DNA of 23,199 nucleotides from Bacillus sp. JCM 19058 (lineage in GTDB: Bacteria > Bacillota > Bacilli > Bacillales_H > Bacillaceae_D). Of this stretch, positions 1-20,683 are shown in pieces. The position numbers were made by a program, and so were the translations under genes. Position 1 is the stretch's first letter; every line of letters starts with the position of its first letter. The stretch lies in the NCBI GenBank assembly GCA_001310555.1, contig BAXO01000082.1, positions 1-23,199 on the forward strand, read 5' to 3'. The notes under the pieces were generated by a model. That model was not told the DNA's origin and ran no database searches. It was given only the letters and a program-made list of their open reading frames with translations.

Positions 1-968
1 GATGGGCAATATACTCTAGGGCTTCACCTACTAGTTTTAAAGCTGTCAAATCCCCTTTTTTCGCGCATTCGAAAACAAACTCTGTCGTAAGCTTTTTCCC
101 TTTTTCATAATGCTCCTTAAGCAACCCGGAATTGTGTTTCTCTTCTAATACGTTCTTCTCAATTGCAATACCTGAGGATACGGCCTCTAAACAACCATAT
201 CTCCCACAACTACATTGTGGTCCATTTTTAACCATTTGCATGTGACCAACCTCACCGATAGCATTTCTTGTTCCAGTCAGTAAAGTGCCGTTTGAAACAA
301 TTCCAGCCCCTATCCCATTCCCTAAAGATAAATAAAGCATATGCTTAACATCTAGACCAACCCCATAGAAATGTTCCCCTAAAGCAGCCGCATTAGTATT
401 ATTATCAATAATTGTCTTTAGCCCAATCTTGTACTCAATTTCTTTTTTTAAGTTCAACATTTTTCCATTCTAAATTTGCGGAAGAAACAATAATTCCGTT
501 GTTAACATCTACTAAGCCAGGGGCAGCTACACCAATCCCTAGAAAGTTGGACATACCCTTTTCTTTTCCTAATTGCTTTGTCTTTTCAATAATATCAATA
601 ATTGTCGGAATCTTATTTTCTTTCTCTTTTGGTGTCTGGACAGCTATTTTTTCACGAACACTAGCTCGCAAATCTATAATTCCACATGTGATTTTTGAGG
701 AGCCAATATCAACTCCCAAAATATATCCACCTTGCTCATTGATTCCAATTCTAATTGGCCTCCTTCCTCCAATAGACTTACCCTCCCCTAGTTCTTTCAC
801 AATGCCAGCAGATAATAATTCGGCAACTAGGGTCGAAACTGTGCTGTTACTCATACCCATCGTTCTAGCTAATTCAAGCCGAGATATACCATCATGTTTT
901 TGAATTGTTCTTAAGATAGCCATTCGATTTATTTGTTTAATTAATAATGAATTCCCTGTAATCACCAT
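1..968 (-). CDS. ROK-family transcriptional regulator (NagC/XylR type), 3' end cut by window edge, one frame break
   Basis: This is a sugar-responsive repressor of the ROK family. An N-terminal winged helix (RTIQKHDGISRLELARTMG and the segment after it) binds DNA, and a sugar-kinase-like body follows, with the phosphate loop GVDIGSSKITCGIID, GIGVAAPGLVD, the acidic IDNNTNAAALGE segment and the zinc motif GH..CSCGRYGCLE near 190-245. The frame is open back to 1028, but the ATG at 968 is preferred because GGAGGAG lies just upstream and the ATG at 1028 has no ribosome binding site. The frame breaks at a run of seven T at 443-449; reading it as six restores the ROK protein to the window edge. About 320 residues are visible of the roughly 390 usual for the family. 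It is the last gene visible in a minus-strand catabolic locus and probably regulates it. The family call is firm; the ligand is unknown. Confidence 0.88.
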
Positions 969-1063
969 TTGCTCCTCCACACTTCTTTTTTCAATCGACG
1001 AAATAAGTTTGTATTTCTTTTCTACCATTTAAAAGAGGTAAAGTCAATATAATCATTAATATT

Positions 1064-1084
1064 CATTTTGACTAATCAAAAATG
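1064..1084. promoter_or_regulatory. Small inverted repeat upstream of the ROK gene
   Basis: CATTTTGA and TCAAAAATG face each other around CTAA, about 100 bp upstream of the preferred ROK start. It could be an autoregulatory operator. This is inferred only from its symmetry and position. Confidence 0.3.
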
Positions 1085-1115
1085 AAAACAAACTCTTACT
1101 ACTTTCTTTTACTCA

Positions 1116-1164
1116 AGACTAGGACAATCATTTTAGCAATTTCTAAGCAATATTGTCCTAGTCT
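1116..1164. repeat. Long inverted repeat with 13-bp perfect arms
   Basis: AGACTAGGACAAT (1116-1128) is exactly complementary to ATTGTCCTAGTCT (1152-1164). The 23-nt centre contains a second small palindrome (TTAG...CTAA). It lies between the end of the epimerase gene and the start of the ROK gene. There is no T-tract on either side, so a classical intrinsic terminator is unlikely. A structured RNA or an operator is possible. Confidence 0.55.
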
Positions 1165-1272
1165 AAAGTCTATCAAACTACTCGAAAGATACACTGACTT
1201 CTGAAATCACTTTTCACTTCATTCTTGAATATACCTGAACATTTCATCTACCTACAATACTTTTCTACACCC

Positions 1273-2390
1273 TCACCCATACTGCCTAAGCTTCTCCTCA
1301 TCTACCTCCCAGCCAATACCTACTCCTTTTGGAAGCGATACTTTCCCTTTATAAACGTTTGCTTTTTCACGCGACGGATCATCCGCTAAATATAACGGAC
1401 CATTTAGATCGACTGGGGATTGAATTCGTAACACATGAAACAAATGTGCACTCGCATAAAAAGCTAGTGAAGACTCTGTCAGCCCCCCGCCAAGTAATTC
1501 TAATCCAGCGGCTTGAGCCATTTCTCCACACCGTTTTGCTGGCAACAATCCACCCATTTTAGTTACTTTAATAACTACCGCATCACATGCCTCTAGCTGT
1601 ACAGCACGAATGACGTCTTCAGGTGTCCAAATACTTTCGTCCAACGCTATCGAGACTGTCGTAGATTCTCGAAGCTTTGCATGCCCGAGTAGATCATGTG
1701 CTGATAGCGGTTGTTCGAATACATCAACACCGATTGCTTCCATCTCTTTGGCAAGACCAATCGCTTCTTTTAATCGATATGCTTGGTTCGCATCAACTCG
1801 TAAGTAGGCATCTGGAACAATTTTTTTTGACAGCTTTTATTATTGCTAAATCAAATTCTGGATGAATCCCAATTTTGAGATCAACTCCATTGAAGCTTAG
1901 ATCTTTAGCAAGATACGCTTTTTCCTCCGCCTCCTTAACTGATTTCGCACTAATTAAATATGAAAGTGCGATCTGCTCCTGTTGTTTAGACTGCCATAAA
2001 TGGGAAAGCGGTTGCCGACATTTTTTTTCCGATTAAATCCATTATTGCTATATCGACCGCAGCTTTGGCTATCGGTTGACCTCTTGTCAACCCCGAGGCA
2101 ATTTCTTGATCCATCACGTTATGCATAGAGCGAAGATCATATAAATTAAGGCCGACTAGCTTCTTTGAAAAATAATTTCTAATCGTACTGGCAACCGTTT
2201 CCAATGTTTCATAGCTCCAACGATGGCTTGGACGCGCTTCTCCCCAACCTTCCTCACCGTCCTCTGCGGTCATTCGCACATAGACATGAGGTACTCCTGT
2301 TTTCTGATCACCGACTTTCCCACCAGAAATATAAAAATCTTCATTCATCGGTAATTTTAACGGAAATACATCAAGCGCTGCAATCCGCAT
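1273..2390 (-). CDS. Enolase-superfamily protein (mandelate racemase/muconate lactonizing enzyme type), two frame breaks
   Basis: This is a predicted cytosolic epimerase, racemase or cycloisomerase of the MLE/dipeptide-epimerase branch. Once two A8 runs on the coding strand (2021-2028 and 1821-1828) are read one base shorter, a 371-residue protein results, the normal family length. The capping domain starts MRIAALDVFPLKLP. The barrel carries the metal-binding order D (RVDANQAY), E (FEQPL), D (ALDES) and the late Lys (VVIKVTKMGG). The position of the usual KxK motif reads DLK, so only the second Lys is kept. The neighbouring M55 D-aminopeptidase and solute-binding protein suggest uptake and conversion of an amino-acid-derived or sugar-acid compound. 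Substrate cannot be read from the sequence: L-Ala-D/L-Glu epimerase, N-acylamino acid racemase and hydroxyproline-betaine epimerase are all possible. Confidence 0.85.
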
Positions 2391-2457
2391 AGACTGCTCA
2401 CTTCCTTTCGAAAATAACGACTCTTTAATCTCATAGATACTTTATAAAACTAGAAAT

Positions 2458-2476
2458 GGGAGCTTGGTAGGCTCCC
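2458..2476 (-). terminator. Hairpin between the solute-binding protein and epimerase genes
   Basis: GGGAGC and GCTCCC form a 6-bp stem around TTGGTAG. It lies downstream of the solute-binding protein stop and upstream of the epimerase start. On the minus strand it is followed only by a weak U-rich stretch, so it may attenuate rather than end transcription. Confidence 0.35.
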
Positions 2477-2615
2477 TTGTTTATATCAATATAAAATGGA
2501 CCTTTATGCAGTGGGGAATTCCTTCACCCCCTCTGAATGTAAGTTAAATCAACCGTTATGTTAGCGGCCGTATAGCATTGTTGATGAGAGTTTTTTGGAA
2601 TAAATGCTCGCCCGT

Positions 2616-3997
2616 TTAATCCGCTTGAGCAGCCTTTGCATCTTGAATTTTCAACTCCGATTCTCCCCTTAAATCCCTCAATGCTGTATTGACATCGACT
2701 CCAGTATCTCTCATTTTTTCTAACGCTGAACCAATATCAACATATTGATTCCAATAACTAAAGTCTTCGTCAAAAATTGCCGGTTCTAATACAAACCATG
2801 CATCCCTATTTTGGTTTTCATAAGTCGGTTCATCAGCAGCATATTGGCTCATAACTTCCGGATCTCGTAACACACTGACAGCAGAACCGTTTCTGATCAT
2901 TTGAACTTGACTGTCAGGTTCAATAAATGCTTTAAACACTTGAAAAGCTTCATCTTTTTGCTCACTGTAGTTAGCAATCACGAGTGGGTACGTACTTAAG
3001 TAAGGACCGACTTCTGGATGATCGGGTCTCACCGGTATAGGTGCCATTTCTATATTGCCTAAAAATTCCTCATCTAAGGAGGTTAAAAACATATTATTTG
3101 AAGTCATCATGCTGCTCGCTGTTCTGGAAACAGGTTCCCTTCTGCGTCAAGCTCAGCTACCCCTGGAATGCTAAAGTATCGGTCCATCTTATCAAAATAT
3201 TCTCGGATATTCGGATCGTCTTCAATAATGACTTCACCTGTCTCCGGATCTGTAAAATTCAGAGCGTATTGGCGTAATGGATAAACGGCAGCCGAACTCG
3301 TACCACCTCCATGGAACTGAAAACCGAGATATTCAACGCCATTTCTTTCCCCTGTTAAACGCTCGGCTAATTCAAATGTTTCCTCCCACGTCATTGGAAT
3401 ATTAGGATCAGGATACGGTTCTCCGAACAAATCAAAAATTTCTTTATTGTAATATAGAGCAACGTGAGATGCCCCGTCTGGAATTCCGATGATTTCTCCT
3501 TGCCCTAATCCTCGGACATATGCCAGAGAAGATGGGCGAAGACTATCTAAATCAAACCCGTGCTTTTCAATTAAGTCATCTAGCGGTTCAACCAAGTCAT
3601 ACTCAAATAATACTCTCATATTAAAGAACGGCTGGTTAATAATATCTGGATAAACGCCACTCGCAAATAGCTCTTCAAGCTGATCAGCATTTCCATTGTA
3701 TGGGACATATTCAAGTTCAATATTCGGTAGTTTCTCAGCAATATAATCGAATCGGTTATGAAACGTTTCTTCAGAGGCCATTGCAATTTGAATAGTGACA
3801 GGCTCTGCATTTTCTTCTTGATTAGTATTTTCGCCTACAGTATTATCAACTTCTGTCTCAGCTGTATCCCCTTCTCCTGATGGATTTGAATCTGTTTCAT
3901 TAGAACACGCGACAAGTAACAAGATTGGCAAAAAAAGAACGATTAAAAACAACATCACCCTACTTCTTTCAGATAACCATTCCATTATTTCGTCCAT
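2616..3997 (-). CDS. ABC-transporter extracellular solute-binding lipoprotein (family 1), one frame break
   Basis: This is a membrane-anchored substrate-capture protein of a sugar-type ABC importer. It has a positively charged start, a hydrophobic segment and the lipobox LVAC, with the lipidated Cys near residue 31, followed by an acidic Asn/Glu-rich linker. The body shows the SBP_bac_1 pattern (HVALYYNKEIFDLFGEPYP, then MTWEETFELAERLTG). The frame stops near 3110 after FPEQRAA and resumes immediately in another frame with MMTSNNMFLTSL. One missing base gives a continuous 460-residue protein of normal length. As written, the two halves overlap by ATGA, which would split one domain. No permease or ATPase gene lies beside it. 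The start is uncertain because two close ATGs exist and neither has ideal Shine-Dalgarno spacing. Confidence 0.85.
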
Positions 3998-4263
3998 CCC
4001 CTTGTTTTCATTTTGACATTACTCGTGCACATTTAAAGGATAAGCAGCTAAATAGTCAGCATAGTATTCATTCACTTAACCATAAACGCTTTGAACAATA
4101 ACACATCCCATCCTTTTCACCTCCTTCAACTCTTCCCAGACAGCATAGAATGGCTTCACCAGAATCAACTCGTATACCGACTAAACGAATTGAGTGCGCA
4201 GATAGAATCTCCAGTACCATATCAAGTGCTCTATACAAAGTAATTTCCTACGGGTTTTCTAGA

Positions 4264-4279
4264 TCGAAAGCGCTTACTT
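4264..4279. promoter_or_regulatory. Catabolite-responsive element (cre)-like box
   Basis: TCGAAAGCGCTTACTT fits the Bacillus CcpA consensus WTGNAANCGNWNNCWW with one mismatch (C for the invariant T). It lies about 270 bp upstream of the solute-binding protein start. Carbon catabolite control of a sugar-type importer would make sense. Confidence 0.5.
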
Positions 4280-4402
4280 TTAAATGAATAGCCAGTTCGT
4301 AAACAACACTAATTTTGTTCCTTTTATTCAATTGGTGTGCATTCACCTAATTCAGACAATTTAATTCATGGCTTTTTTTCCGTGTGCATTACTTATTCCG
4401 TC

Positions 4403-4420
4403 TTAGTAATCGATTACTAA
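4403..4420. promoter_or_regulatory. Perfect 18-bp palindromic operator candidate (LacI type)
   Basis: TTAGTAATCGATTACTAA is a perfect palindrome with the central CG typical of LacI/GalR-family operators. It also matches the cre consensus with one mismatch. It lies between the M55 gene and the lipoprotein gene, and related sites recur at 6604 and 6845. Confidence 0.6.
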
Positions 4421-4549
4421 AACCGTGAGTTTTTTACATCACTTGTTTCTCTTATAGTCTCTCCTACTCGTGTAAATATGATTTACTGCTTTGCCCAGAA
4501 GCGATTCGTCATTTGCTATCCCGCGTTTTAATTATTAAAACGACATTAC

Positions 4550-5344
4550 TTAAAGTGCCCGACCAAATAATTGCACTAAATCAGTACCTTTATATAAAGC
4601 TTCTAACCCATTTAAACGAATACTCTCTTTTCCATCATAATAACGAGAATCAGCTATATCGGTACTAATAAAATGAATTAATAATTCATAAGGAGCTTTC
4701 AACGTATAGGGTTGGACCTTAGCTTTGTTTTCAACCGCCTGTTTGATAACTCCTTCTAAATCCTGATACACCTTTTGTGGTGCTTTTAATAAACCTCTAT
4801 GACGGCCTAAGCCTATTTTTGTTTGATACGTCGTCACATGTTCAAGCGTTTCCTTTGCTTCTGCACACGTTTTATCATCACCTGTCACTAAAAGAACAGG
4901 TACTTCGTGCAAGCCAAATAATAAACTGTCTAATCCTATTTCACCGATTTCATGACCATTGAGCTTCAAATATTGCCATCCCTTCGATGTCATCGTATGA
5001 TCTCGAATGGCGTCCTTCACCCCTCCTTTCCCATGGTAGCCAATTAAGAATGCTCCATCGAAACTAGCATCTACTCCGGCAAAGCGCTGTTCTGTCTTTA
5101 ATCCTCCCACACAGTAAGTCGCTGCAGGGTGGAGGTGTTCCATGAGAAAGTTAAATCCACTACTATGCGCGTCTTTAACAATAATCTCAGTCGCCCCTTC
5201 CTGCACTAAGGACTCTACGATTACATTGACCTCTTTCGTTAACAACTGACGCGCTTCGTTATATAATGACTCCCCTCTGCGTAACTGTTGGGGCAAGATG
5301 ATTCCAGCAATTCCTTCCATATCAACACTTATATAAAACTTCAT
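4550..5344 (-). CDS. M55-family D-aminopeptidase (DppA-like)
   Basis: This is a zinc-dependent aminopeptidase that releases N-terminal D-amino acids from short peptides; the family model is Bacillus subtilis DppA. The protein has 264 residues, close to the family length. Counting from the chosen ATG puts the zinc-ligand positions where DppA has them: D8 and E10 (SVDMEGI), H60 (KDAHSSGFN) and H104 (GYHGKGG), followed by DHT near 115-117 and Glu at 132/135 (GHEIGEIG). This register also supports the start, which has AAAGGAGCG nine bases upstream. The gene has no homopolymer of seven or more bases and is unbroken. It follows the hydroxyacid dehydrogenase by 63 bp on the same strand and is probably co-transcribed with it. 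A role with the epimerase in using D-amino-acid-containing peptides is an inference. Confidence 0.9.
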   Translation of the reverse strand: MKFYISVDMEGIAGIILPQQLRRGESLYNEARQLLTKEVNVIVESLVQEGATEIIVKDAHSSGFNFLMEHLHPAATYCVGGLKTEQRFAGVDASFDGAFLIGYHGKGGVKDAIRDHTMTSKGWQYLKLNGHEIGEIGLDSLLFGLHEVPVLLVTGDDKTCAEAKETLEHVTTYQTKIGLGRHRGLLKAPQKVYQDLEGVIKQAVENKAKVQPYTLKAPYELLIHFISTDIADSRYYDGKESIRLNGLEALYKGTDLVQLFGRAL

Positions 5345-5407
5345 TATTATCGCTCCTTTTTTCGCGAATGGCCTGTAACAGTTGTTTTTCTCAGTCTGTA
5401 CGCCACT

Positions 5408-6397: not shown

Positions 6398-6603
6398 TGT
6401 CAGATCCCTTCTTTTTTATTCTTAAATTATCCATTCGTTTAGCGCTCATTCACCGTTAGTTTTGCTAAGCTTGGTCCCATTTTCCCGTCTACACCAAGGA
6501 GTCATCAACAACCTTCCGATTAAGCTAAAGCGCAGGAGTAGGATCGGCTTAGCTTTCCTCTAGTTCCGCACGAGTTTGTACGATATTCATTCCCTCGCGC
6601 TAT

Positions 6604-6617
6604 AGTAATCGGTTTCT
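6604..6617. promoter_or_regulatory. Operator-like box, copy 1 of AGTAATCGGTTTCT
   Basis: AGTAATCGGTTTCT is an imperfect form of the palindrome at 4405-4418. It fits the CcpA cre consensus with one mismatch. It lies about 210 bp upstream of the hydroxyacid dehydrogenase start. The similarity to copy 2 extends for about 55 bp (a T-run, then AACAGAA and another T-run). Confidence 0.5.
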
Positions 6618-6844
6618 TTTTTTGATTAAAAAAATGAACAGAAGTATTTTTCCTTTTACGAAAAAAACCGCTGAACAAAAAGCCAGTGTATTATTTACTC
6701 CCCCCTCCTTTTTAGGAATGGCAATGATCATAAGGTCAATCATGAAGCTGTTTTCGATTATATTCTTGCGTAAACGAGTTCTTGTTCACTAACTCTAGCC
6801 CTTTCAGAGAATTATCTGTCAATATATGGTCTACCTTTTACTTA

Positions 6845-7140: not shown

Positions 7141-7440
7141 TTATTTCAATCCTTCGCGTGCTGAATTTAGCTCAGCTAATTGTTGATCAAGCTCTGCTTA
7201 CGTCACATCCATTTTGTTCAGCGTTTTTTTCTGTCGCTTGGAAAGCTTCATTTCTGTATAGTCGTCCTTATCTAGGTTTTCGTCGTTGATTTGTATCATT
7301 CGATTTGTTAATGCAGATTTATTGCCAATCTTATTGTTACTACTAAATACTTCAAATTCAGTAAAGGAATACCCAAATATAGTTGCTCTTTCTACCCCTT
7401 CAAACTTAACATATCGTGTTTGTGAGCGGTATGAACATGA
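7141..7440 (-). pseudogene. 3' remnant of a secreted protein gene: end of an F5/8 type C domain plus a FIVAR-like repeat
   Basis: About 100 codons are readable on the minus strand. The first part, TRYVKFEGVERATIFGYSFT followed by EFEVFS, matches the final strands of an F5/8 type C (discoidin) carbohydrate-binding domain. Next comes a helical segment beginning KSALTNRMIQINDENLDKDD with YTE after it, ending AELDQQLAELNSAREGLK; the spacing and YT...AELD pattern resemble the FIVAR repeats of secreted Gram-positive glycosidases. An in-frame TAA at 7198-7200 (probably CAA originally) interrupts it, and the natural stop is at 7141. Upstream of about 7440 the similarity fades and no N-terminal part or signal peptide is found. 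Unlike other breaks in this window, this is a nonsense change with large-scale loss, so real decay is likely. It may once have belonged to the neighbouring catabolic locus. Confidence 0.65.
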
Positions 7441-7822
7441 AATGAGAACGGTCCCATAATTACATATATTGGAGTTCTGAGCTCTGTTGCATTTATTCTT
7501 GCATTTTACTGTCGGACAAATAAATAAAATGACTATTCGTCATGAAGGTTCCTCTAGAAAAGCTGATAAATAAACAGTCTGTCTCCTTCTTTCCTCTACT
7601 CCTAATCTCCTCTCTCAATTATCGACTGCTCGTCAATATGCTTATTGATAATACCTTGGCCGTCTTCATTCAAGCGGTATCTCTCACTCACCTATAATTA
7701 AGTATTCATAGATTACTACTCTTAACAATATAGAGAATCTCTTTTTAATGGTAGGAGTTTTACAATGAATAAAGAATATAGTAAGCGCTGAATAAAAGCT
7801 TCATAGAAAAGAGGGAGACAAA
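7441..7822. other. 382-bp stretch between the gene remnant and the SGNH hydrolase
   Basis: The left part may hold further unrecognisable remains of the decayed gene. The right part is the promoter region of the hydrolase. AGGAG followed by an 8-codon frame (MNKEYSKR, ATG at 7765) lies just before it and is too short to call. Confidence 0.4.
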
Positions 7823-8923
7823 ATGGCCGAAGAGCGTCAAACCATTCACGTCGGAAAGTTAGACAAACATATGAAAGCCGAATCAACGGTCGGAGGTGAA
7901 CTGCAATGGTTTAGCCCAATGCAAACAACTTTTCAGATTAGTGGTTTTGCTTGGTTTCAAGAGGAACAAACATACCGGCGCTTGCCAAAACAACCAAAAT
8001 ACGAAATAACGGAGGCTGTAGATATTTTGGCTAACTGTACAGCTGGGGGACAAATTCGTTTTCGAACTAATGCAACGACATTGAGAGTAAAAGTAAAGCT
8101 ACAAGGAAAAGCAAATATGTACCATATGCCAGCTACTGGGGAATGTGGTTTTGATTGCTATATTGGTGATCCTGGGAACCAACGTTTTTGCGGTGTGACA
8201 AGTTATAACCATAGTCAGGAGCAGTATGAAGCGAATCTTTTTGAAAGACAAGAGGATGATTCTATTCTTGTGACACTGCATTTCCCTCTTTATCAAGGTG
8301 TGGAGAAAGTACAAATTGGACTTAATGCGAATGCAGTCATACAACGACCTCCAGATTATGATTGCCATAAAAAGCTCATTTTTTTATGGGACATCCATTC
8401 TCCAAGGCGGATGTGCTTCTCGCCCAGGAATGCTTATACGAATATTTTAAGTCGCCGCTTTAATCAGGAGTTTATTAATCTAGGTTTTTCTGGAAATGGT
8501 AAAGGAGAAGCTGAAATGGCAAGGCTAATCCGGGAAATCGAAGAGCCTGCCTGCCTTGTATTAGATTACGAGCCTAACTGTGTAAGCACCGCATTATACA
8601 AAGAAACATTGCCTAGGTTTATCCAAATATACCGAGAAACTCACCCGACAGTCCCTATTTTAGTCATTTCAAAATACCCGTACGCACATGAAAGGGTGAA
8701 CTCCACTCTACAACAGGACCGGAGCGAGCGCTTAACCTTTCAAAAACAGCTTATCCAGCAGCTGCAAACAGATGGAGACAGCCATCTTTATTTTTATGAT
8801 GGAACTGACTTACTCGGTGAAAATTGGCATGAAAAAACGGTTGATGGCTCCCATGCCACTGATTTAGGCTTTATGTCAATGGCAGAAGCATTGACTCCTG
8901 TCATTCGAGGCATTTTAAAATAA
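7823..8923 (+). CDS. SGNH/GDSL-family hydrolase, active-site serine segment misread by two compensating frame changes
   Basis: This is a predicted esterase or carbohydrate deacetylase. An N-terminal beta-sandwich (to about residue 180) precedes an SGNH domain. As written, the reading frame is open for 366 residues, but residues 186-203 read IFLWDIHSPRRMCFSPR, where the family has its serine block. Reading the T7 run at 8379-8385 as six gives IFYGTSILQGGCASRPG, a clear GDSL serine motif. One added base near 8432 returns to the frame YTNILSRRFNQEFINLGFSG. The Gly/Asn block (LGFSGNGKGE) and the catalytic pair D341/H344 (DGSHATDLG) are in the normal frame. The start has GAGGGAGA seven bases upstream. 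The gene is alone on the plus strand. Relatives are often polysaccharide deacetylases, which would fit the carbohydrate context. Confidence 0.85.
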   Translation: MAEERQTIHVGKLDKHMKAESTVGGELQWFSPMQTTFQISGFAWFQEEQTYRRLPKQPKYEITEAVDILANCTAGGQIRFRTNATTLRVKVKLQGKANMYHMPATGECGFDCYIGDPGNQRFCGVTSYNHSQEQYEANLFERQEDDSILVTLHFPLYQGVEKVQIGLNANAVIQRPPDYDCHKKLIFLWDIHSPRRMCFSPRNAYTNILSRRFNQEFINLGFSGNGKGEAEMARLIREIEEPACLVLDYEPNCVSTALYKETLPRFIQIYRETHPTVPILVISKYPYAHERVNSTLQQDRSERLTFQKQLIQQLQTDGDSHLYFYDGTDLLGENWHEKTVDGSHATDLGFMSMAEALTPVIRGILK

Positions 8924-9189: not shown

Positions 9190-10404
9190 CTAGCCTTTTG
9201 TTTTTTTGTTAGCGATTAGCCAGACGATACCAAGCGCGAAAAGCAAGCAGCAGACGATATAATAAATACTCGACAAACTATAAAACTCCAGCAGTAAGAA
9301 TGCTGTTATAGGACCAAAGGCAGCTCCGACATCAACAGCGATCGTATGCGCTGTAATTACCTTTACTCGATCAGATTGAGCCGCTGCCGTGAGCGCTAAT
9401 GTATCAGTAGTTGTGACAAAAACAGTTGATAGCAACTGAAAGACGAAAAGAAAAATGATGAGATACACAATCGACGGTTGTATAGCAAAGAGTAGGAAAA
9501 GACTGCTGCAAAAAAAACAGCGGGATGAGAAGCACCCTTGACATCATCGCTTGATTGCGAAGCAATTTTCCGATAACAGGTGCGAGAAACGGGTCCCAGC
9601 CCCAGCGAACCGCTTGAATAACCCCTGCGATTGTTGCAGCTCCGATCGCAAACTGTCCGATTGACCAATCGCTCAAGTAGCTTCGTTCGATTAACGGACT
9701 AAGCGTTGAAGCAAACACACCAAAGACAACAAACCCTAGCATTAAGCCTGTCACTAGAACAAGCTGAATGTAAGGAGATAACCAATGCTGTAAAACCGAC
9801 TTGCTCCCCGCATCCTCACTCTTTGTTGCTCCCTTCACCTTCGGTACGACCATCGGAATAAACAGCATAGAAAGCAGTCCAATTAGTCCGAAAAGCAAAG
9901 TCACAACAAGAACCGAAAATTGATCGGCAAAAATGCCTCCCCCGAGCATGCCCAGTAAGCCTCCGATTCCCCATAGCCCGTTGTAAAGACCGACTAAATG
10001 GCCTCGATTTTGCGAAGACGAAACCTCACCAACCGTTAAATATCCTCCCAACCTTAGAAAGGACCAGGCAACTCCCCATAATATACGCATAATGACAAGT
10101 AGCCAAAACTCCCCTGCAATTCCATAGGATATCGTTGTCAAAACGGCTAGTATACTCGCAATCATCACTCCAGCCTTATCGAATAACGCTGATAAAACAG
10201 GCCGACTAACGGATTCACAGGCAAACGAATAAAGCGATTGATTGAAAGCAGAAGCCCAATTTGCCAAATGGCTGTTAAGCCGAACTCCTGCCAATAAAGG
10301 GGCAAAGCGATAAAAAGCATTGAGTCTCCGAGAACGGCTGCGGCTGTAATCAAAGCGATACCTACGACACGCTTTTTGGCTGTCACCTGCTTACTCCCTT
10401 CCAT
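9190..10404 (-). CDS. Major facilitator superfamily transporter, two frame breaks
   Basis: This is a twelve-helix inner-membrane secondary transporter of about 404 residues, probably an efflux or sugar/drug permease. The N-terminal helices (GIALITAAAVLGDSMLFIAL) and the basic loop after helix 2 are typical of MFS proteins. The frame needs one added base near 10185 (FYQR to LFDKAGVMIAS) and one fewer base in the A8 run at 9510-9517 (LFF to AIQPSIVYLIIFLF). A T7 run at 9201-9207 falls in the last codons; if it is also one base long, the tail reads NKKQKARNQQLV with a stop at 9171. The ATG at 10404 overlaps the end of the upstream pyrophosphatase gene by 14 bp and has AAGGA eight bases ahead. 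A GTG at 10386, preceded by AAGGGAG, is an alternative. The two genes form an operon divergent from an SgrR-like regulator. Confidence 0.85.
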
Positions 10405-11301: not shown

Positions 11302-13091
11302 ATGAAATTGCTCGAGCATTACTCTGCATTAGTTAAGAACCTGCCATACAGAGTTCCTCTAAATATTACCGTTGCCGCTATTGCAAAGCTTCTTAGCTGC
11401 ACGGAGCGGAACGCAAAAATAATCATTCGCAAGCTTCATCAGGCTGGCTGGATTGAATGGAAGGCGGGCAGGGGCAGAGGAAATCGCTCTGAGATCTCTC
11501 TTCTTGCCGACCGGGATGATCTCGTTATTCAGCAGGCAAAAGCTATAGCTGCAGGAGATTCAACCATTGACAAGGCGATTCAATTCACTCGAAAATACGA
11601 CCTTGATGAACAGCTTCATAAAGAGCTGATTCGTTGGTTCTTCTTTTCCTCTGACGCATCAGCACCGTTAGTTGATCCGAACGGAAAGGATACCATTCGC
11701 TTCCCTTCCTATCGTTCCTTGCCCGTTCTCGATCCACTTCGCATTTATCGTCGCACAGAAAATCATATTATGCGCCATATTTTTGATACGCTCGTTACTT
11801 ACGATGAGCAGCTTGAGAAGCATGTTCCTCAACTGGCTCACTCCTGGTCACACAATGACACCTTTACTCAGTGGGTTTTTCATTTGAGAAAAGGAGTTCA
11901 ATTCCACAACGGCAAGGAGATGACAGCAGCGGACGTCTGTTATAGCCTTTTGCGGCACCGAGCACAGACATCTCCCTTTCACTCACTGTTTACTATGCTT
12001 GAAGCCGCAACTCCTGCCGATGAAAGGGTTGTAATGATTGATTGCTCTGCTCCTTGTCCGAGCTTTCTCGCAATTGCCGCCTCTTTAGGTGGAAGCATCG
12101 TTCCTGAAGAAAGCAGGATGGCTGAATCGTTCTCCAAGCTTCCGATTGGAACGGGCCCTTTTCGAATAAAGCTTAATAACAGTAATAAACTTACGCTAGA
12201 AGCGTTTCCAAATTACTATGGGTATCGTCCTTTATTAGATGAGGTGAGCCTTTATTTCTTGCCCCAGCTCTACGATAGCCAGAATATTGAGCCTTCTCTT
12301 GGAGAGGAGCAAGCAAATTTTTATCCTTATCCTTACTTGATTCATAACCTCCAACAATATAAGCAGGAGCGTCTGATCGATCGAGGAGCGAAAATTCTTG
12401 CTTTAAACCTAAACAACGGTATTCTTGCCGTGGATCAGTGGCTCAGAAAAGCGATTGCTACTCTGTTGCCGGCAAAGAAATTAATTAAAGAATTAAAGGG
12501 AAATCGCTTTGCTCCAGCCTCACGACTGCTCCTGGAGCATGAGGTCGAAAGAGAGCAAACGAGTACTCCTGCTGTGTCCGAATGGTTAAGAAAAAGCTCC
12601 TACCGAGGAGAAACGTTAAAGCTATTCAGTTATCACGGGGCCGGTAACGAAAATGATGCCCGTTGGATCAGAAAACAGCTAGGCCAAGCGGGAATTTCGG
12701 TCAGCTTCATTTTTTTTCGACTACGATAAGCTCCACAGCAGTTCACTTGGCAAGGAGGCAGACTTCCTTTTAGGAGAGCAGCTGTCAGATGAGGATCCGC
12801 TGCTCACTTACTTAACCTCTTTTTTTAGGGGATCAAAGCTTGATTTCCCTACATTTAAACGTGCAAACGAAACAAATGATCCAATCATTTCTTCGTCAGA
12901 TGGACAGAAATAAACGGCTGTATGCTTTTCAGCAAGTGGAAAATGAATTAATATCGAGCGACAGCATTATATTTTTATATCGACTCCAGCAATTTGCGAT
13001 CTATAAAGAGGGATTGGAAAATATATCTCTTAATGCATTAGGGTGGGTCGATTACACTAAAGTCTGGTATAACCGAACGAAAAAACGCTAA
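11302..13091 (+). CDS. SgrR-like transcriptional regulator with solute-binding (SBP_bac_5) domain, two frame breaks
   Basis: This regulator joins an N-terminal winged helix (residues 1 to about 110; ITVAAIAKLLSCTERNAKII is the recognition region, then GWIEWKAGRGRGNRSE) to a periplasmic-oligopeptide-binding-like domain that senses a ligand in the cytoplasm. The binding domain is marked by HIFDTLVTYDEQ, WVFHLRKGVQFHNGKEMTA and GTGPFRI. The frame needs one fewer T at 12710-12717 (restoring IFFDYDKLHSSSLGKEADF) and at 12820-12826 (restoring TSFLGDQSLISLHLNV). The corrected length is 595 residues, normal for the family, and it ends with the characteristic LGWVDYTKVWY. The start has a GGAAGAAGG ribosome binding site. 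In Escherichia coli, SgrR controls the sugar efflux gene setA. Here the divergent MFS gene occupies an analogous position and is the likely target. Confidence 0.87.
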
Positions 13092-13444: not shown

Positions 13445-13552
13445 ATGCGGCAATTAAATATCAATAACGAAAAGAAAGGACAAAAAACGATGACGATAAA
13501 GAGGGTAATTTTATATGAAAGTACTCAACATTGGAGTGTTGGCCCATGTTGA
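13445..13552 (+). CDS. Possible 35-codon leader peptide overlapping the start of the Tet-like GTPase gene
   Basis: An ATG at 13445 has a near-perfect AAAGGAGG nine bases upstream, better than the site of the main gene (AAGAGGG before 13515). It opens a 35-residue frame ([20 protein letters not shown], then 15 more) whose stop at 13550-13552 lies inside the GTPase gene. Tet(M) genes are known to be controlled by leader-peptide translation and attenuation. The position supports a similar role, but the peptide is not recognised and no attenuator hairpin was identified between the two starts. Confidence 0.4.
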
Positions 13553-15464
13553 TGCTGGTAAAACAACATTAACAGAGCACATTCTCTTTAAGTCCGGCAT
13601 TATTGAAGAAGCCGCTCTGTCGATCAAGGTACGACAAAAACAGATTCATTGGAAATTGAGCAAAGACGAGGCATTACAGTAAAATCGGCTGCGGTCTCTT
13701 TCACAATTAACGATTTGAAAGTCAATTTGATTGATACGCCAGGCCATGCTGATTTTATTTCTGAGGTCGAGCATTCCTTAAGCATTTTGGATGGCGCGAT
13801 TCTTGTCATTTCTGCCGTCGAAGGTGTACAAGCGCAAACTAGAGTATTGATGCAAACGTTAAAAGAACAATGTATCCCTACCGTTTTATTTATGAATAAA
13901 ATTGACCGTCTCGGTGCGAACTACAAAAAAAACACGTGCGATGATTCAAAGGCTGTTGGATGAGCATATTTGTGACATGAACGAAGTCATAAACGAAGGC
14001 CGTGCATCCGTTCGCATTACTCAGGCTAATCCTACCGAAATAGGATGGGTTGAGACGCTGGCCTTAAAAAAATGACGCTCTCTTTCATGACTATGCTAAT
14101 GATATAGCGATACGAAGAGAACGGCTTGAGGACGAATTACATCAGCAAACAAAAATAGGTAACGTGTTCCCGCTTTTTGCCGGCTCGGCTGCCAAAGGGA
14201 TTGGAGTTAGCCAGCTGCTTGAGCGCTTAGGTCATTCTTTCCTGTAAATATTCAATCGAATCTAATGGCAAAGCCGCTTTCCGGAATCGTATTCAAAGTT
14301 ATGAAAACAACGACTGGGGAACGAAAGACGTTTATTCGTCTGTTTGAAGGAACGATTCGAGTCCGAGATGAGATAGCGGTTATATCGCAGGACGGACGAA
14401 CTGCTTCTACCAAAGTGAAGCAGCTGCAATCCTTGCAGGATGGAAATCAGATTTCTGTAAACGATATTGCCTGCGGGGATATTGCCATTATAACCGGAGG
14501 AGATTTAAAGGTAGGTGACATTATCGGTGCTGCATCCGACAAATTGAGAGTTCTTCAATTTCATAAGCCACCGATTCTAGTAAAGGTTTCGGCTAAGCAT
14601 CAAAAGGAGGAACAAATACTCCATAACGCTTTACTTAACCTTACAATGGAAGATCCTTTCCTGAAATTTGTTCAGGACGCGAACACAAAGGAAAATACAA
14701 TTCACCTATTCGGCAAAATACAGCAAGAAGTTCTTGCCGAGTCCATTAAACATCAATATGGAATCGAAGCGACGTTTTCAGCACCAAAAATAATTTGTAT
14801 TGAAAAACCGAGTTCCATCGGAACAGCTGTTGAATATATGGGTGCATCAAATAACCCCTTCTTCGCAACAGTCGGATTTCGAATCGAACCAGGTCTTGAT
14901 GGCTCAGGATTGCAATATCGGTTAGAAGTCGAGCTGGGCTCCCTTCTTTTATCCTTTCAGAAAGCCATTAAGGAAACGGTAAAGAAGGTCTTGCAGGAAG
15001 GGTTGTACGGGTGGACCGTAACTGACATTACAGTGACTTTGACACATACAGGATACGATAGTGTCCAATCAACTGCGAACGATTTTCGCAGCTTAGTCCC
15101 ACTCGTATTAATGAATGCCTTGCAGAAGGCGGAAACGAATGTTTATGAACCGGTAAACAAATTTCAGTTGATCCTTCCCGAATTCGGTTTAAGCAAGGTC
15201 TTATCCCAGTTGTCTGCTCTAGAAGGAACTTTTCACGAGCCACAATATCAAAATAAAAACGTTCACCTAAATGGGACGATCCCAGTACGCACTTCCGACA
15301 CGCTAAAGTCCGAGCTCTATTCGCTAACGAGCGGAGAAGGAATGATTTCGTTTAAGCCTAACGACTACGTAAAAGTAAAAGCTGATTTCCCTAAGAACAG
15401 TCGAACACAATTAAATCCATTGAATCGCGGAGAATACCTACTCCACTTAAATAAAATCAAGTAA
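13515..15464 (+). CDS. Tet(M)/OtrA-like ribosomal-protection translational GTPase, four frame breaks
   Basis: This EF-G paralogue belongs to the family that removes tetracycline from the ribosome. Visible GTPase motifs: P-loop AHVDAGKTT, switch [20 protein letters not shown] and AGSAA. Later come domain II ([20 protein letters not shown]) and EF-G-like domains III-V, ending [12 protein letters not shown]. The frame needs four edits: one base added near 13613 (restoring [17 protein letters not shown]), one fewer A at 13925-13932, one fewer A at 14066-14072, and one base added near 14227 (restoring [15 protein letters not shown]). The net result is 649 residues, close to Tet(M) length. The long sections between edits are well conserved, so the gene is probably intact in the organism. 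Whether it gives tetracycline resistance or is a housekeeping relative cannot be told from the sequence. No transposon surrounds it. Confidence 0.85.
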
Positions 15465-15599
15465 TGTCACACACGCGAAATCCAACGCTTTGGGCTTTCA
15501 GCCTCGCGACTATTTCGGTAAATCGAAATTTGGTCGACAGGCTGACCGATAAACCATTTGATTTTGCGATGAATGAAGAACAAATTTCGATCAGGAAGC

Positions 15600-15632
15600 A
15601 GGAGCGCGACAGCTATCGCGCTCCTCTTTTGG
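15600..15632 (+). terminator. Terminator of the Tet-like GTPase gene
   Basis: AGGAGCGCGA (15600-15609) and TCGCGCTCCT (15616-15625) form a perfect 10-bp stem with a 6-nt loop, followed by CTTTT. It lies 135 bp past the GTPase stop. Confidence 0.65.
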
Positions 15633-15649
15633 ATAGAGAGTTAATTCGA

Positions 15650-15719
15650 CAGGAGAGACTCTTTTTTTCGGCGGGAGAGCCGGGGGATCCGACGGGAGAG
15701 ACGCTTCTTTCGACGGATT
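15650..15719. repeat. Cluster of short imperfect GRCRGGAGAG repeats
   Basis: GACAGGAGAGACTC with a T-run, GCGGGAGAGCCGGGG and GACGGGAGAGACGCTTCTTT follow one another in about 70 bp. The composition is richer in G than the surroundings. It may be a copy of a dispersed intergenic element, but no second locus is in the window. Confidence 0.4.
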
Positions 15720-15927
15720 AGGATAAACCACTTCCATTGCCCAACTGCACCAAGCTGCCCGTCACATTCTATGTCCTGTACTTCCTCCCCATCACGTACG
15801 GGGCATGCATTATTGCCATTAACCACCTGCGATTGAGAATAGTCCAAAGCGGGAACTCGACTCATCTGCTTGAAAAAAAGCATCTAGTCCTGGCGTTAAG
15901 GAAGTTTATTATAAATGGCAGGTGTGA

Positions 15928-16716
15928 TTACGGCAACTCTATACCAAAATAGGTGCGTAGCGCATCTGCATGCTCCTTATCCGTCTGTGGAATAAATACT
16001 TGAACGCCTTCTTCTGTGAAAATGCGAAACTCTTTGCCTGCAATCGAATTACGGCCACTTGCTGTCCGGATAGCAGCCATGGCTTCCTTTACAAATATTG
16101 ATTCTGGCGCGTGTTCACACCAATATGTGGCCATAATAAAATCCTTCGGCAATTGCGGTTCTTCGGTGAAGGAGTATATGCGGCTCCATTGCTTATTTTT
16201 TTCTTTCACACAACATCCAACCATAATAAGGATCCTTTTCCAGCCTATAATATTCATCGCCCTGCTGCTGCACCAAATTCTCAACCATCTTTATCGGCCT
16301 GCGCGGGACAATTCCTCCCACGCCCACATCGCATAAGTAAAGCTCGCTCTCTACCTGTACCTGCAACACATGATGGCGCCTTTTCGGTGGAGGGTTCGGC
16401 TCATCTCTCCAAAACCTGGAAAACAAATCAGTCACGGTAAATCCGAGCTCCCGCAAGAGCCAGCTAAACAGGCATTCAGTTCAAAACAGTATCCGCCGCG
16501 ATGCTGGTCTACGATTTTCTTAAAGAGGTCGGGAATTTCCAATGATAGAGGGATCCCCTTTAAAATATCGAAATTCTCATAAGGCACTGCATGAAGATGG
16601 CGCTCCTGAAGTTGAGTTAATGTGGCTACGCTTACATCGGTCGGACCAGTATAGCCAATTCTTTTCAAATAAAGAGCAACATCCAGCTGCTTCTCCTCAG
16701 TATGACTTTCCTTCAT
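15928..16716 (-). CDS. Arylamine N-acetyltransferase, two frame breaks
   Basis: This cytosolic enzyme transfers acetyl from acetyl-CoA to arylamines, hydrazines or related compounds through a Cys-His-Asp triad. Cys77 is in RGGYCFELN, the His in KRRHHVLQVQV and the Asp in YLCDVGVGG. The N-terminal block HLHAVPYENFDI is typical of the family. The frame needs one base added near 16461 (restoring LLRELGFTVTDLFSRFWRD) and one fewer base in the T7 run at 16196-16202 (restoring RKNKQWSRIYSFTEEPQ). The corrected protein has 262 residues, normal for bacterial members. AAAGGAG lies eight bases before the start. It is divergent from the antiporter gene. The natural substrate is not known. Confidence 0.88.
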
Positions 16717-16867
16717 GTTCTCGACTCCTTTAATATATTAATAACAGAAAAGCTTACTACTATTATAAACCTTTCATCATAGTGAGTAGAATAATAAATT
16801 CGACAAAGTCGTTTTTCCTTTTTACAAGAAACGAATACAGCTAAGGATGGTTGTATTAAAAACGGTG

Positions 16868-16896
16868 TTGTATATTTAATTATTATATTTTATAAT
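16868..16896 (+). promoter_or_regulatory. SigA-type promoter of the NhaC-family gene
   Basis: A perfect -10 TATAAT (16891-16896) lies 17 bp after a weak -35 TTGTAT (16868-16873) in very A/T-rich DNA. Transcription would start near 16903, which rules out the upstream GTG at 16902 and supports the ATG at 16935 as the start of the antiporter. Confidence 0.6.
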
Positions 16897-16934
16897 TATT
16901 CGTGTCGTTATTAAAAGTAGAAAGGAAAATATGG

Positions 16935-18452
16935 ATGGAACATATAGGATTATTGTCGCTACTTCCCCCGCTCATCGCTATTATTATGGCGTTGGTCACA
17001 AAAAATGTCATTATCTCTTTATTTACCGGCCTGTTTACAGGCGTATTGATCCTATCACAGGGTCGACCACTCCAAGCGACAATGGATACAATCGGAAACT
17101 ATTTGTTCACACAGCTAACCGATAGTTACAATGCAGCAGTATTGGTTTTACTAGTGTTCATCGGTGGATTTGTCGCCCTTATGGAAAAATCGGGAGGAGC
17201 GGCAGCTTTCGCAAAGAGTACGATAAAATATATTAACACTAGAGCGAAGGCGCAGCTAGCAGCTTGGTTTGGCGGAATAATCGTTTTCTTTTCCGATTTA
17301 GGTACTCCACTTATTGTTGGACCCGTTTTCGAAAAAAATTTATGACAAAGTGAAGGTTTCCCGTGAGAAATTGGCTTGGATCATTGATTCTACTGCTTCT
17401 CCTGTCGCGGTATTGATCCCGTTTATTGGCTGGGGAGTTTATATCATGGGGTTAATTAAGCAAGAATTTGACAACTTACAGGTGACTGAATCTGAGTTTA
17501 CCGTATTTGTCCAAGCCATTCCGTTTCAATTTTATTCTTTTTTTAGTTATCCTAATGGTACCGCTCGTTGCGTTCACGAAATTGGAATTTGGCGCGATGG
17601 CAAAAGCGGAAAAAAGGGTCCGCGAAACAGGGGCATTGTACTGGAAAGACTCTAAACCGTTAAGAAAGACTGAACAAGTTGAAGATTTAACTTCAAACAG
17701 TAACCCTCTACTAATCTGGTTGCCATTGCTTGTACTATTTGTTACCTTATTCGGTCTATTAGTCACGTTCGGTTTCCCGTTCGAGCCAGTAGCCGGCGGA
17801 GATTTCAGAATTTCGTTAAGCACTGCATACTTATTCGCAAGTGTTATCCTTGTCCTCCTCATGATTGTTTACAAAGTAAAAACGATGACGGAAACGTTTG
17901 AAATTTATTTGTCAGGTATGCAAAAAAATGATGTATGTCGCCGTCATCTTAGTATTGGCGTGGGGATTGGGTACCGTTTTAAGCGATTTGGGAACAGCAG
18001 CTTACATCGTTGAGATCATGGAGGGAAATGTTCCTGGCTTTATAGTGCCGGCAATCCTATTTATTGCGGGAGCCATAATGTCGTTTGCAACAGGAAGCTC
18101 TTGGGGAACTTACGCGATTATGCTTCCATTAGCTATTCCGATGGCGCTAGGCCTGGATGCGCACATGATAGTTTGTATTGGCGCGGTCTTATCAGGTGGA
18201 ATGTTTGGCGATCACTGCTCACCAATTTCAGATACAACTGTTTTATCGTCAACTGGCGCAGGGTGTGACCATATTGATCATGTAAAAACACAATTACCCT
18301 ACTCTTTATTAAATGCCGCGAGCGCACTAGTCGCTTATATCATCGCCGGAATTACAGGAAATGTGATTTCATTACTCATTGCCGTAACGCTTATGTTCGT
18401 GTCTGTCTTTTTTATTTCCAAAATGCAGGCTGCCAAATTAGCGAACCGGTAG
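16935..18452 (+). CDS. NhaC-family Na+/H+ antiporter, three frame breaks
   Basis: This is a multi-helix membrane protein of the NhaC family, exchanging sodium (or coupling an organic acid) for protons. The start at 16935 has AAAGGA eight bases upstream. The N-terminal part LLSLLPPLIAIIMALVTKNV and the C-terminal signature GDHCSPISDTTVLSSTGAG, then CDHIDHVKTQLPYSL, are diagnostic. Three runs must be read one base shorter: A7 at 17332-17338, T7 at 17538-17544 and A7 at 17922-17928. The corrected protein has 504 residues and continuous hydrophobic segments, with one charged cytoplasmic loop near the middle (MAKAEKRVRETGALYWKDSK). It would help keep sodium and pH balance, which fits an alkali- or salt-adapted host. 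It stands alone, with its own promoter and terminator. Confidence 0.88.
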
Positions 18453-18457
18453 CTCTA

Positions 18458-18486
18458 AGCCTCTCGCAATCGGGAGGCTGTTTTTT
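18458..18486 (+). terminator. Terminator of the NhaC-family gene
   Basis: AGCCTC (18458-18463) pairs with GAGGCT (18474-18479), followed by GTTTTTT. It begins 5 bp after the antiporter stop codon. Confidence 0.75.
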
Positions 18487-18529
18487 AAAATCGATTTTTC
18501 TAAATTCTCATTCGTCTTTCCTAGAAAAG

Positions 18530-18980
18530 TTACATTAATTTTTTTTAACTCGAATAACAAAGTGCTTTTTAACGCTTCTAATTCGCGGTTACTCGGTTTC
18601 ACCCGATCCGCGTACATCGTTTCTTTAGACGTCCACCAAACCGGCCATTCCGGATTCGGCTCACTTAACCTTCTAGGAAAAATGTGCCAGTGCATATGAG
18701 CATCACCGTTACCGAGCAACTCGTAGTTTAGTTTGTCTGGCTTAAAAGCATGATAGACAGCTTCCGATACTTTACTCATTTCAACTAAAAATTTTTCTTT
18801 GTCACCGCGGTTTAATTCGTGTAATTCGTGTTTATGTACATTACTAAGAAAAAGCGTATAGCCTTCGAAATATTGATGATCTCCTATTACCACATACCCT
18901 GTTTCAAGCTCGGTTACAAAATATTTGTTCCTCCCTTTCTTAATCAATTCGATTCGCTCACATATTAAACATTCATTCAT
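18530..18980 (-). CDS. HIT-family nucleotide hydrolase/transferase, frame runs on past its likely stop
   Basis: HIT proteins hydrolyse or transfer nucleotides at phosphoramidate- or polyphosphate-type linkages. The active-site triad motif HMHWH is at residues 95-99 within NGDAHMHWHIFPRRL, and CLIC near the start fits the zinc-containing branch. AAGGAGGT lies just before the start at 18980. As written, the frame continues to 18438, through the antiporter terminator and into the antiporter gene. An A8 run on the coding strand at 18539-18546 explains this: with seven A the protein ends ELKKLM at a TAA at 18530-18532, giving 149 residues. The extra tail (NVTFLGKTNENLEKSILKNS and 12 more) is then an artefact. 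The gene is convergent with the antiporter. Confidence 0.85.
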
Positions 18981-19433
18981 GCGTGTACCTCCTTACTCTT
19001 ATGTTATGAAGCTTAAGTATTTTATAATTGATGAAAATCTGACCAAATCAATCGATTCCTCTAACACTAGCCATACAGAAGTCTTATGACGTGGACCATG
19101 TTAGTTTAATAGAAAAAGTTGTCACCTTAGATCTTTCGGCGAACATTTTGCATGTGATAGTAAGAATGCTGGGTACAGCCTATACTTTCCTCCGCGTTCA
19201 CATCCTGTGTGGGAAAACTGAGTAACATAGCCATTTTTTAATTAAAATATCTGATTAAATTATAGTCCATTCATCACTCTGTTTCTTTATAACACTCGGT
19301 ATGCGAATAAAACTATGCAAAAAGAATTATTAAACATGTAAAATGTCTTAAATAAAGTTACCTAGTAGGTTATACTTATTAATAGATATAGAAAATAGGG
19401 TAGTGACCAACACTAAGGGGGAGGACTAAGACT
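18981..19433. other. 453-bp gap upstream of the small AUU-start gene
   Basis: A/T-rich sequence without a supported gene. It must hold the divergent promoters of the HIT gene and the small gene to its right. No repeat or clear operator was seen. Confidence 0.45.
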
Positions 19434-19763
19434 ATTAGCACGCCAAAAAATAAAGACTTTAAGCATTATGTAAACAAAGAAACACTCACACTCCATCATC
19501 TTGGAGAGCCTGATAAATATGAAAAATGGGCAATGGAAATTGACTTTGAATTGAAAGAAAAGCTCCCGGATGGCAAAATGTATGTTCTCAGTAGACCTAA
19601 AAATAACCCAGTCGAAAAGCCTAGTTTTGAGTTACTAGATGAGGCTTATGTGAAGGAAAATTTTGTCGAAATTGACGACATCTATTTATTTATAGCAGTC
19701 GCAATTGAGATGAAAGCTGGAAAGATAGAAAAAGCAAAAAAACTACTTAAAGATATATTGTAA
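19434..19763 (+). CDS. Small protein of unknown function, probably starting at an AUU codon
   Basis: The 109-residue protein is not recognised. It is charged and soluble in appearance, with a C-terminal amphipathic helix (AIEMKAGKIEKAKKLLKDIL) and no signal peptide. An ATG at 19533 gives only 76 residues, but the same frame is open and protein-like upstream (TPKNKDFKHYVNKETLTLHH). No ATG, GTG or TTG occurs in frame between the upstream TGA at 19404 and the ATG at 19533. A strong GGGGGAGG sits nine bases before an ATT at 19434, so translation from AUU is the best reading. It is followed at once by a terminator. A sequencing error at the start codon is the alternative. Confidence 0.6.
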   Translation: MSTPKNKDFKHYVNKETLTLHHLGEPDKYEKWAMEIDFELKEKLPDGKMYVLSRPKNNPVEKPSFELLDEAYVKENFVEIDDIYLFIAVAIEMKAGKIEKAKKLLKDIL

Positions 19764-19769
19764 GGAATC

Positions 19770-19796
19770 CCCGCCAATTACAGCGGGACTTTTTTT
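19770..19796 (+). terminator. Terminator of the small AUU-start gene
   Basis: CCCGC (19770-19774) and GCGGG (19783-19787) form a short GC stem, followed after AC by seven T. It lies 7 bp past the stop codon. Confidence 0.65.
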
Positions 19797-20059
19797 GTTC
19801 GTGTAAAGTTTGGCACACTCCCACGACGTTGTTTGGCCCCTAATTTCCGCAAAAATTTTCAAAGCTCTTGCTTCTATACGTCCTTCACTTTATAACGGAA
19901 GCTATACTTTCCAGCGCATCGTTGTTCGCTTTCGATAAATCCATCACGATGCTTTTGGACACGACTTATTTCTCAGACTCTAAAGTTTTTCTCATCGTTT
20001 CCAAGCTTTATAATATAACGAAGTTTTACAAGACTACTCAAAGTTTGCTATTTATAGAG

Positions 20060-20082
20060 AGAGCCGTTAGGTTAGCGGCTCT
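20060..20082. terminator. Hairpin at the 3' end of the nucleotidyltransferase-fold gene
   Basis: AGAGCCG and CGGCTCT pair around a 9-nt loop, 14 bp past the minus-strand stop at 20096. There is no clear U-tract on either strand, so the terminator role is only likely by position. Confidence 0.4.
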
Positions 20083-20095
20083 TATACCATAATTG

Positions 20096-20683
20096 TTATA
20101 GTGTTATTCCGTTCTTTTTATAAATCCATTCTTTAAATTGATTTAATGATTCAATTTTATGGTTTATAACAGCCTCATAAACATCTACACTGAAAAATAC
20201 TTTACGATACTTAGGATGACTATGCAAATGGCTTTTTATTTCTAATATTGACTTTCTTTTCATATCATCAATTTGCATTTTTAATTCTTTTAATCTTTTT
20301 TTGCTTTTGTTTAATTTCTTCTGAACCTATTGCCCAAATATCAATTTTCCATTGATGTCCAAAAAGATAAGTATGAACTCCCCAGTATAGTCCATTTGGT
20401 AAATGATGAGTTTTCCCAATTAATTCATTCCTAAAACTCATTTTTGACGGGGTTAATCTGATAGAAATATCTTTACCTAATTCAAAAAAAATCTTCATTA
20501 GACATTGTATCCGATTCAAGGTAAATATCTAAATCTCTCCACGTCATCATTTTTAAAAAAATAACTCCCACTAACTTGTGGATTACCCAACTTTTTTAAT
20601 GCATCGTACAATCCTAATGTGTAAAGAATTTCATTTGCCTCGTCCAATATCGTTTCATTTAAAGTTTCTAAGTCTACATCCAA
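20096..20683 (-). CDS. Small nucleotidyltransferase-fold protein, three frame breaks
   Basis: About 194 residues. The pattern GSYFLKMMTWRDLDIYLE fits the nucleotidyltransferase motif hG[GS]-x9-DhD exactly (G39-S40, then D50 and D52), and a third acidic residue is at D114 (WKIDIWAIG). Such proteins transfer a nucleotide to a small molecule, RNA or protein. Three runs must be read one base shorter: A7 at 20555-20561, A8 at 20484-20491 and T7 at 20296-20302. Each correction joins protein-like segments (FFELGKDISIRLTPSKMSFR; RLKELKMQIDDMKRKS). The start is taken as TTG at 20683, preceded by GGGGGTG; no ATG is available in frame. It stands alone, without a HEPN partner, so a classical MNT-HEPN toxin pair is not supported. 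Target unknown. Confidence 0.65.

What the first reader, a model, noticed from the sequence alone, without database searches (positions are those of the whole stretch)
443..20561. Every frame-breaking A/T run of 7-8 nt inside a recognisable gene is exactly one base too long
In nine genes of unrelated function plus the HIT gene I found 17 runs where removing one base restores a conserved protein: 443-449; 1821-1828; 2021-2028; 8379-8385; 9510-9517; 12710-12717; 12820-12826; 13925-13932; 14066-14072; 16196-16202; 17332-17338; 17538-17544; 17922-17928; 18539-18546; 20296-20302; 20484-20491; 20555-20561. A 6-nt run in the ROK gene (near 56-61) is in frame. The one-directional error and the length threshold point to base-calling or consensus error, not gene decay. 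Whole-window gene counts from this sequence would be badly inflated.
Basis: partly seen in the sequence, partly recalled or inferred. Interest (0 to 1): 0.75.

Follow-up and report, generated by a model that had tools for sequence, protein, structure and literature searches.

The report
Overlong A/T runs: likely sequencing error
In this stretch of bacterial DNA, long runs of A or T inside otherwise normal genes are written one letter too long and break the genes, most likely because sequencing or assembly misjudged run length rather than because the genes are dead.

Summary
The pattern is real in the letters. Frameshift-aware alignment of ten genes to relatives puts 11 of the 17 listed runs at or beside a frame change, all 11 of them +1. 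Of the other six, two lie in a tetracycline ribosomal-protection-like gene and were left out, three lie in a stretch for which I found no homologue, and the HIT run lies at the end of the homologous part. Among homology-covered A/T runs, 11 of 13 of length 7-8 break frame, 0 of 50 of length 5-6. Two corrections: three further shifts are -1, away from long runs, so the error is not one-directional; and in the esterase a -1 follows the run about 16 codons later. Decay is unlikely: 0 in-frame stops in 3563 codons. The run-length spectrum fits relatives' if about 43% of runs of 6-8 were lengthened by one, though the signal outside genes is weak. A second assembly of the esterase keeps both shifts but differs in a T5 run. 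Best reading: run-length calling or consensus error; platform not identified. Ordinary.

The parts
443..449 (-). T7 in ROK-family gene; +1 frame change beside it
   Evidence: best point base 440, about 34% identity
1821..1828 (-). T8 in mandelate racemase/MLE-like gene; +1
   Evidence: one homologue (L025)
2021..2028 (-). T8 in the same gene; +1
   Evidence: one homologue (L025)
8379..8385 (+). T7 in SGNH esterase; +1
   Evidence: 8 of 8 homologues
8430..8434 (+). -1 frame change in SGNH esterase, no long run
   Evidence: 11 of 11 homologues
9510..9517 (-). A8 in MFS transporter gene; +1
   Evidence: 10 of 11 homologues
10172..10178 (-). -1 frame change in MFS gene, no long run
   Evidence: 32 of 37 homologues at 10172, 5 at 10178
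12710..12717 (+). T8 in SgrR-like gene; +1
   Evidence: 6 of 9 intervals overlap the run
12820..12826 (+). T7 in SgrR-like gene; +1
   Evidence: 8 of 9 overlap, 1 adjacent
16196..16202 (-). T7 in arylamine N-acetyltransferase (NAT) gene; +1
   Evidence: one homologue (L033) and Pfam pieces
16469..16473 (-). -1 frame change in NAT gene, no long run
   Evidence: one homologue (L033) and Pfam pieces
17332..17338 (+). A7 in NhaC-like antiporter gene; +1
   Evidence: 2 of 2 homologues
17538..17544 (+). T7 in the same gene; +1
   Evidence: 2 of 2 homologues
17922..17928 (+). A7 in the same gene; +1
   Evidence: 2 of 2 homologues
18539..18546 (-). T8 at the end of the HIT gene; inconclusive
   Evidence: no shift inside the homologous part
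13925..14072 (+). two listed runs inside a tetracycline ribosomal-protection-like gene; not tested
   Evidence: pieces scanned apart only
20296..20561 (-). three listed runs in a stretch without known homologue; not confirmed

Best explanation
The contig comes from a Bacillaceae chromosome whose genes are probably intact. Somewhere between signal and consensus, A/T runs of true length 6-7 were often (about half the time in genes) written one base too long, and a few single bases were lost elsewhere. Shown: the frame changes, their sign, the length threshold, the absence of nonsense codons, the shifted run spectrum. Inferred: that the underlying DNA has the shorter runs, and that the cause is base calling or consensus. 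The platform is not identified.
For: 11 of 13 homology-covered A/T runs of 7-8 break frame by +1 and 0 of 50 of length 5-6. 0 in-frame stops in 3563 aligned codons beside 14 shifts. The same aligner found 0 shifts in 20 alignments between relatives (those genes were picked as hits with open frames, so this mainly controls the method). Run spectrum: 10.3, 12.1, 3.9 A/T runs of 6, 7, 8 per 10 kb, against 16-23, 6-8, 1-2 in five relatives; lengthening by one of 43% of runs of 6-8 raises the log-likelihood by 12.6. Most extreme of 80 segments. A second assembly of the esterase differs from the window in a T5 run. Run-linked indels are a known error of several platforms.
Against: Three shifts are -1 and not at long runs. 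The protein from a Logan contig carries the same +1 and -1 in the esterase; if it came from independent reads, these two would be real. Outside genes the lengthening fit is weak (fraction 0.21, log-likelihood gain 0.95). Ion Torrent on average shortens long runs and nanopore has more deletions than insertions, so no named platform fits fully. No other sequence of this organism was found for the MFS and SgrR genes.
Confidence: 0.88

Rival explanations
1. Real gene decay, for example in a mismatch-repair-deficient or recently relaxed lineage, with slippage mutations at A/T runs.
For: Slippage mutation favours A/T runs (established knowledge). The two esterase shifts are in a second assembly. A gene-like stretch with an in-frame stop lies at about 7141-7539.
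Against: 0 in-frame stops in 3563 codons; 11 of 11 run shifts in one direction; seven of ten aligned genes hit while identity to relatives stays up to 76%; no deficit of long-run lengthening inside genes compared with outside.
Confidence: 0.06
2. The longer runs are in the DNA and the frame is restored by transcriptional slippage, as proposed for Blochmannia and Buchnera genes.
For: Otherwise conserved genes with a frame change at A/T tracts; transcription insertions in bacteria concentrate in A/T runs and rise with run length (PMC5574713, passages).
Against: Runs of 7-8, where the Blochmannia paper discusses tracts of 9 or more; up to three per gene; three -1 shifts outside long runs; the transcriptome study detected no restored frame.
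Confidence: 0.03
3. Programmed frameshifting or phase variation at the runs.
For: Runs of 7-8 A/T can serve as slippery or phase-variable sites (PMC3711429, passages).
Against: Unrelated genes; at the seven shifted sites compared in four genes no relative has a 7-8 run, and one has a 6; PMC3711429 expects unclustered frame-transition genes that match a full protein to be sequencing errors.
Confidence: 0.02

Closest known systems
Ion Torrent PGM flow-call and high-frequency indel errors (PMC3623719, passages; PMC4719071 sections 7 and 8)
   Same: A/T insertions together with single-base losses, about one indel per 1000-2000 bases of reference there and one frame change per about 760 coding bases here, few substitution-type defects
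   Different: There long homopolymers are on average under-called; here every confirmed long-run shift is an over-call. The window's platform is unknown.
Frameshifts at poly-A tracts in Blochmannia genes (PMC3017870, passages)
   Same: Conserved genes with a frame change at A/T tracts and little other decay
   Different: There tracts of 9 or more in very AT-rich genomes and eight genes in a genome; here 7-8, 41% GC, seven of ten aligned genes in 23 kb, plus shifts outside runs
Frame transitions in prokaryotic genomes (PMC3711429, passages)
   Same: Isolated frame changes with a full-length match elsewhere, which that study expects to be sequencing errors
   Different: That survey used complete genomes and gene clusters

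Membership tests
Homopolymer-length sequencing/consensus error | Errors concentrate in homopolymers and depend on run length | tested here: met
   11 of 13 runs of 7-8, 0 of 50 of 5-6; 3 of 14 shifts are elsewhere
Homopolymer-length sequencing/consensus error | Affects coding and non-coding DNA alike | tested here: inconclusive
   Fitted lengthened fraction 0.50 in genes, 0.21 outside with little gain in fit
Homopolymer-length sequencing/consensus error | Independent accurate reads show a different run length | not testable with these tools
   No reads; one other assembly of one gene agrees at the T7 and differs at a T5, origin of its reads unknown
Pseudogene decay | Nonsense codons accumulate beside frameshifts | tested here: not met
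   0 in-frame stops in 3563 codons with 14 shifts
Slippage-rescued frameshift genes | Mixed run lengths in the transcripts | not testable with these tools
   No RNA data
Slippage-rescued frameshift genes | Shifts lie only in homopolymer tracts | tested here: not met
   Three -1 shifts away from long runs
Programmed frameshifting | Slippery site conserved in homologues | tested here: not met
   No 7-8 run at seven shifted sites in the relatives compared; 0 shifts in 20 alignments among relatives

The most novel reading that the evidence does not exclude
The longer runs are in the DNA of a free-living Bacillaceae, and an unusually slippage-prone RNA polymerase (or other recoding) reads them back into frame across the genome, outside any reduced endosymbiont.
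Probability: 0.03. Interest if true: 0.8.

Novelty: not a real feature. Interest (0 to 1): 0.12.

Why it matters
Gene calls from this contig are fragmented and would be misread as pseudogenes or as many short new genes: the aligned genes show about one frame change per 760 bases (14 in 3563 codons). The lesson is to annotate such contigs with frameshift-aware methods and not to infer decay or recoding from them.

Tried and rejected
No whole genome is held for the window. An exact 36-base search of the viral contigs found nothing. Two protein searches that could have shown another assembly of the same organism over the SgrR and MFS genes did not: the only full-identity SgrR hit among the 120 listed is the window's own 475-aa protein, and the best of 84 MFS hits are about 57-60% identical (one 184-aa partial is 65%).

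I first thought the -1 shifts were losses of G before C. That was dropped: at the MFS site the residue is Thr in all 32 homologues that place the shift at 10172, which does not point to a lost G. Ion Torrent as a named cause was considered and left open because its average bias at long runs is the opposite.

tRNA and 5S genes were looked at as a background for indels: 17 tRNA genes are recognised, but this says nothing about long A/T runs in genes. Homologue loci dropped after because the script picked a wrong ORF and the score was low: four of five for MR/MLE, three of four for SBP, two of three for NAT. Whether the SBP gene is shifted near 3113 was not settled (its second ORF, 2616-3110, has no Pfam family).

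Full report
What the window is. The window appears to be an entire 23,199-bp contig: the protein database gives that contig length for the window's own SgrR-like protein. It holds 17 tRNA genes and a 5S rRNA gene at one end. The closest named relatives by protein are Bacillaceae such as Salipaludibacillus, Evansella, Salinibacillus and 'Bacillus sp. J14TS2', at 49-73% identity. No whole genome is held.

The observation. I aligned window DNA to relatives' proteins with an aligner that allows single-base shifts. Eleven of the 17 runs are at or beside a +1 change: 443, 1821, 2021, 8379, 9510, 12710, 12820, 16196, 17332, 17538, 17922. Placement is tight for 8379 (8 of 8 homologues), 9510 (10 of 11) and the three in the NhaC-like gene (2 of 2). 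It is looser for 12710 (6 of 9 intervals overlap the run) and for 443 (best point three bases outside). 1821, 2021 and 16196 rest on one homologue each. The HIT run 18539 lies at the end of the homologous part, without a shift inside it, so it is inconclusive. For the three runs at 20296-20561 I found no homologue. Two runs lie in a gene whose pieces match tetracycline ribosomal-protection proteins below the curated cut-off; I left that gene out.

More than chance. Over the homology-covered parts of ten genes, A/T runs of 5 (43) and 6 (7) are in frame; one 5-base run is flagged only because the T7 at 8379 lies next to it. Runs of 7 break frame in 7 of 8 and runs of 8 in 4 of 5 (Fisher p=1.3e-10). 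The exceptions are 3930, in a signal peptide, and 18539. A T7 at 9201, at the end of the MFS gene and outside that count, is crossed in frame by three alignments.

Three more shifts are -1 and not at long runs: in the esterase near 8434, in the MFS gene near 10172, in the NAT gene near 16472. The sign rule therefore holds for the long A/T runs only. In the esterase the +1 at the T7 and the -1 about 16 codons later cancel, which leaves one 366-aa open frame with a garbled stretch in between.

Decay or error. Against decay: 0 in-frame stops in 3563 aligned codons beside 14 shifts. The same aligner gave 0 shifts in 20 alignments between relatives; those genes were picked as hits with open frames, so this controls the method more than the biology. 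The run spectrum points the same way. Five relatives have 16-23, 6-8 and 1-2 A/T runs of 6, 7 and 8 per 10 kb; the window has 10.3, 12.1 and 3.9. A model in which a fraction of runs of 6-8 is lengthened by one fits with fraction 0.43 for the whole window and 0.50 in genes. In the 5.7 kb outside genes the fitted fraction is 0.21 with little gain in fit, so the spectrum alone does not show the effect there. Among 79 segments of 20 kb from 64 genomes none reaches the window's ratio of long to six-base runs (1.54; maximum 1.09).

A second assembly. A protein from a 6592-bp Logan contig is identical to the window's esterase over 89% of its length. It carries the same two frame changes and differs in a T5 run, after which it is out of frame with relatives. 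If it was built from the same reads, the calls are made at read level and are unstable; if it is independent, it would favour real changes at 8379 and 8434. I could not tell which; the passages of the Logan preprint that I saw (PMC12424806) do not say which platforms it includes.

Cause. Bragg et al. (PMC3623719, passages) describe Ion Torrent PGM errors: over-called short and under-called long homopolymers, and high-frequency indels at about one per 1000-2000 bases that are mostly A/T insertions or C/G deletions. The rate, and A/T gains together with single-base losses, resemble this. The direction at long runs does not, and at least one of the -1 sites (MFS) does not look like a lost C or G. 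A review (PMC4719071, passages and sections 7 and 8) gives net shortening of long runs for PGM and more deletions than insertions for nanopore; for nanopore R10.4 most homopolymers are reported right at consensus level (PMC9262707, passages). I therefore name no platform.

Recoding. Genes whose frame may be restored by slippage are known from Blochmannia, where tracts of 9 or more are discussed (PMC3017870, passages). In E. coli and Buchnera transcription insertions rise with run length, but no restored frame was detected (PMC5574713, passages). Here runs are shorter, three shifts lie outside runs, one gene has three breaks, and relatives have no run of 7-8 at the seven shifted sites compared, one having a run of 6. 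A survey of frame transitions (PMC3711429, passages) expects isolated cases that match a full protein to be sequencing errors.

Verdict. A real pattern in the letters, most likely a run-length calling or consensus artefact with occasional single-base losses; confidence 0.88. Not a new biological feature.

Noticed in passing
window 7141-7539, minus strand: Gene-like stretch with an in-frame stop near 7198-7200 and no upstream part; it reminds me (recalled) of the end of an F5/8 type C domain, but Pfam gave only a weak hit below cut-off to another family (GP17, E 0.004). Possibly a true gene remnant.
   Followed up: partly
window 13515-15464, plus strand: Broken gene whose pieces match tetracycline ribosomal-protection proteins of the translation GTPase kind, each piece below the curated cut-off. 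Described only.
   Followed up: partly
window 20100-20690, minus strand: Gene-like stretch without a family or homologue in the searches made.
   Followed up: partly
window 2616-3997, minus strand: Substrate-binding-protein gene in two frames that meet near 3110; no long A/T run at the join; sign of the shift not settled.
   Followed up: partly
   Followed up: no
window 8790-8794: T5 in the esterase where the Logan protein P0001 implies one base fewer than the window and goes out of frame.
   Followed up: partly
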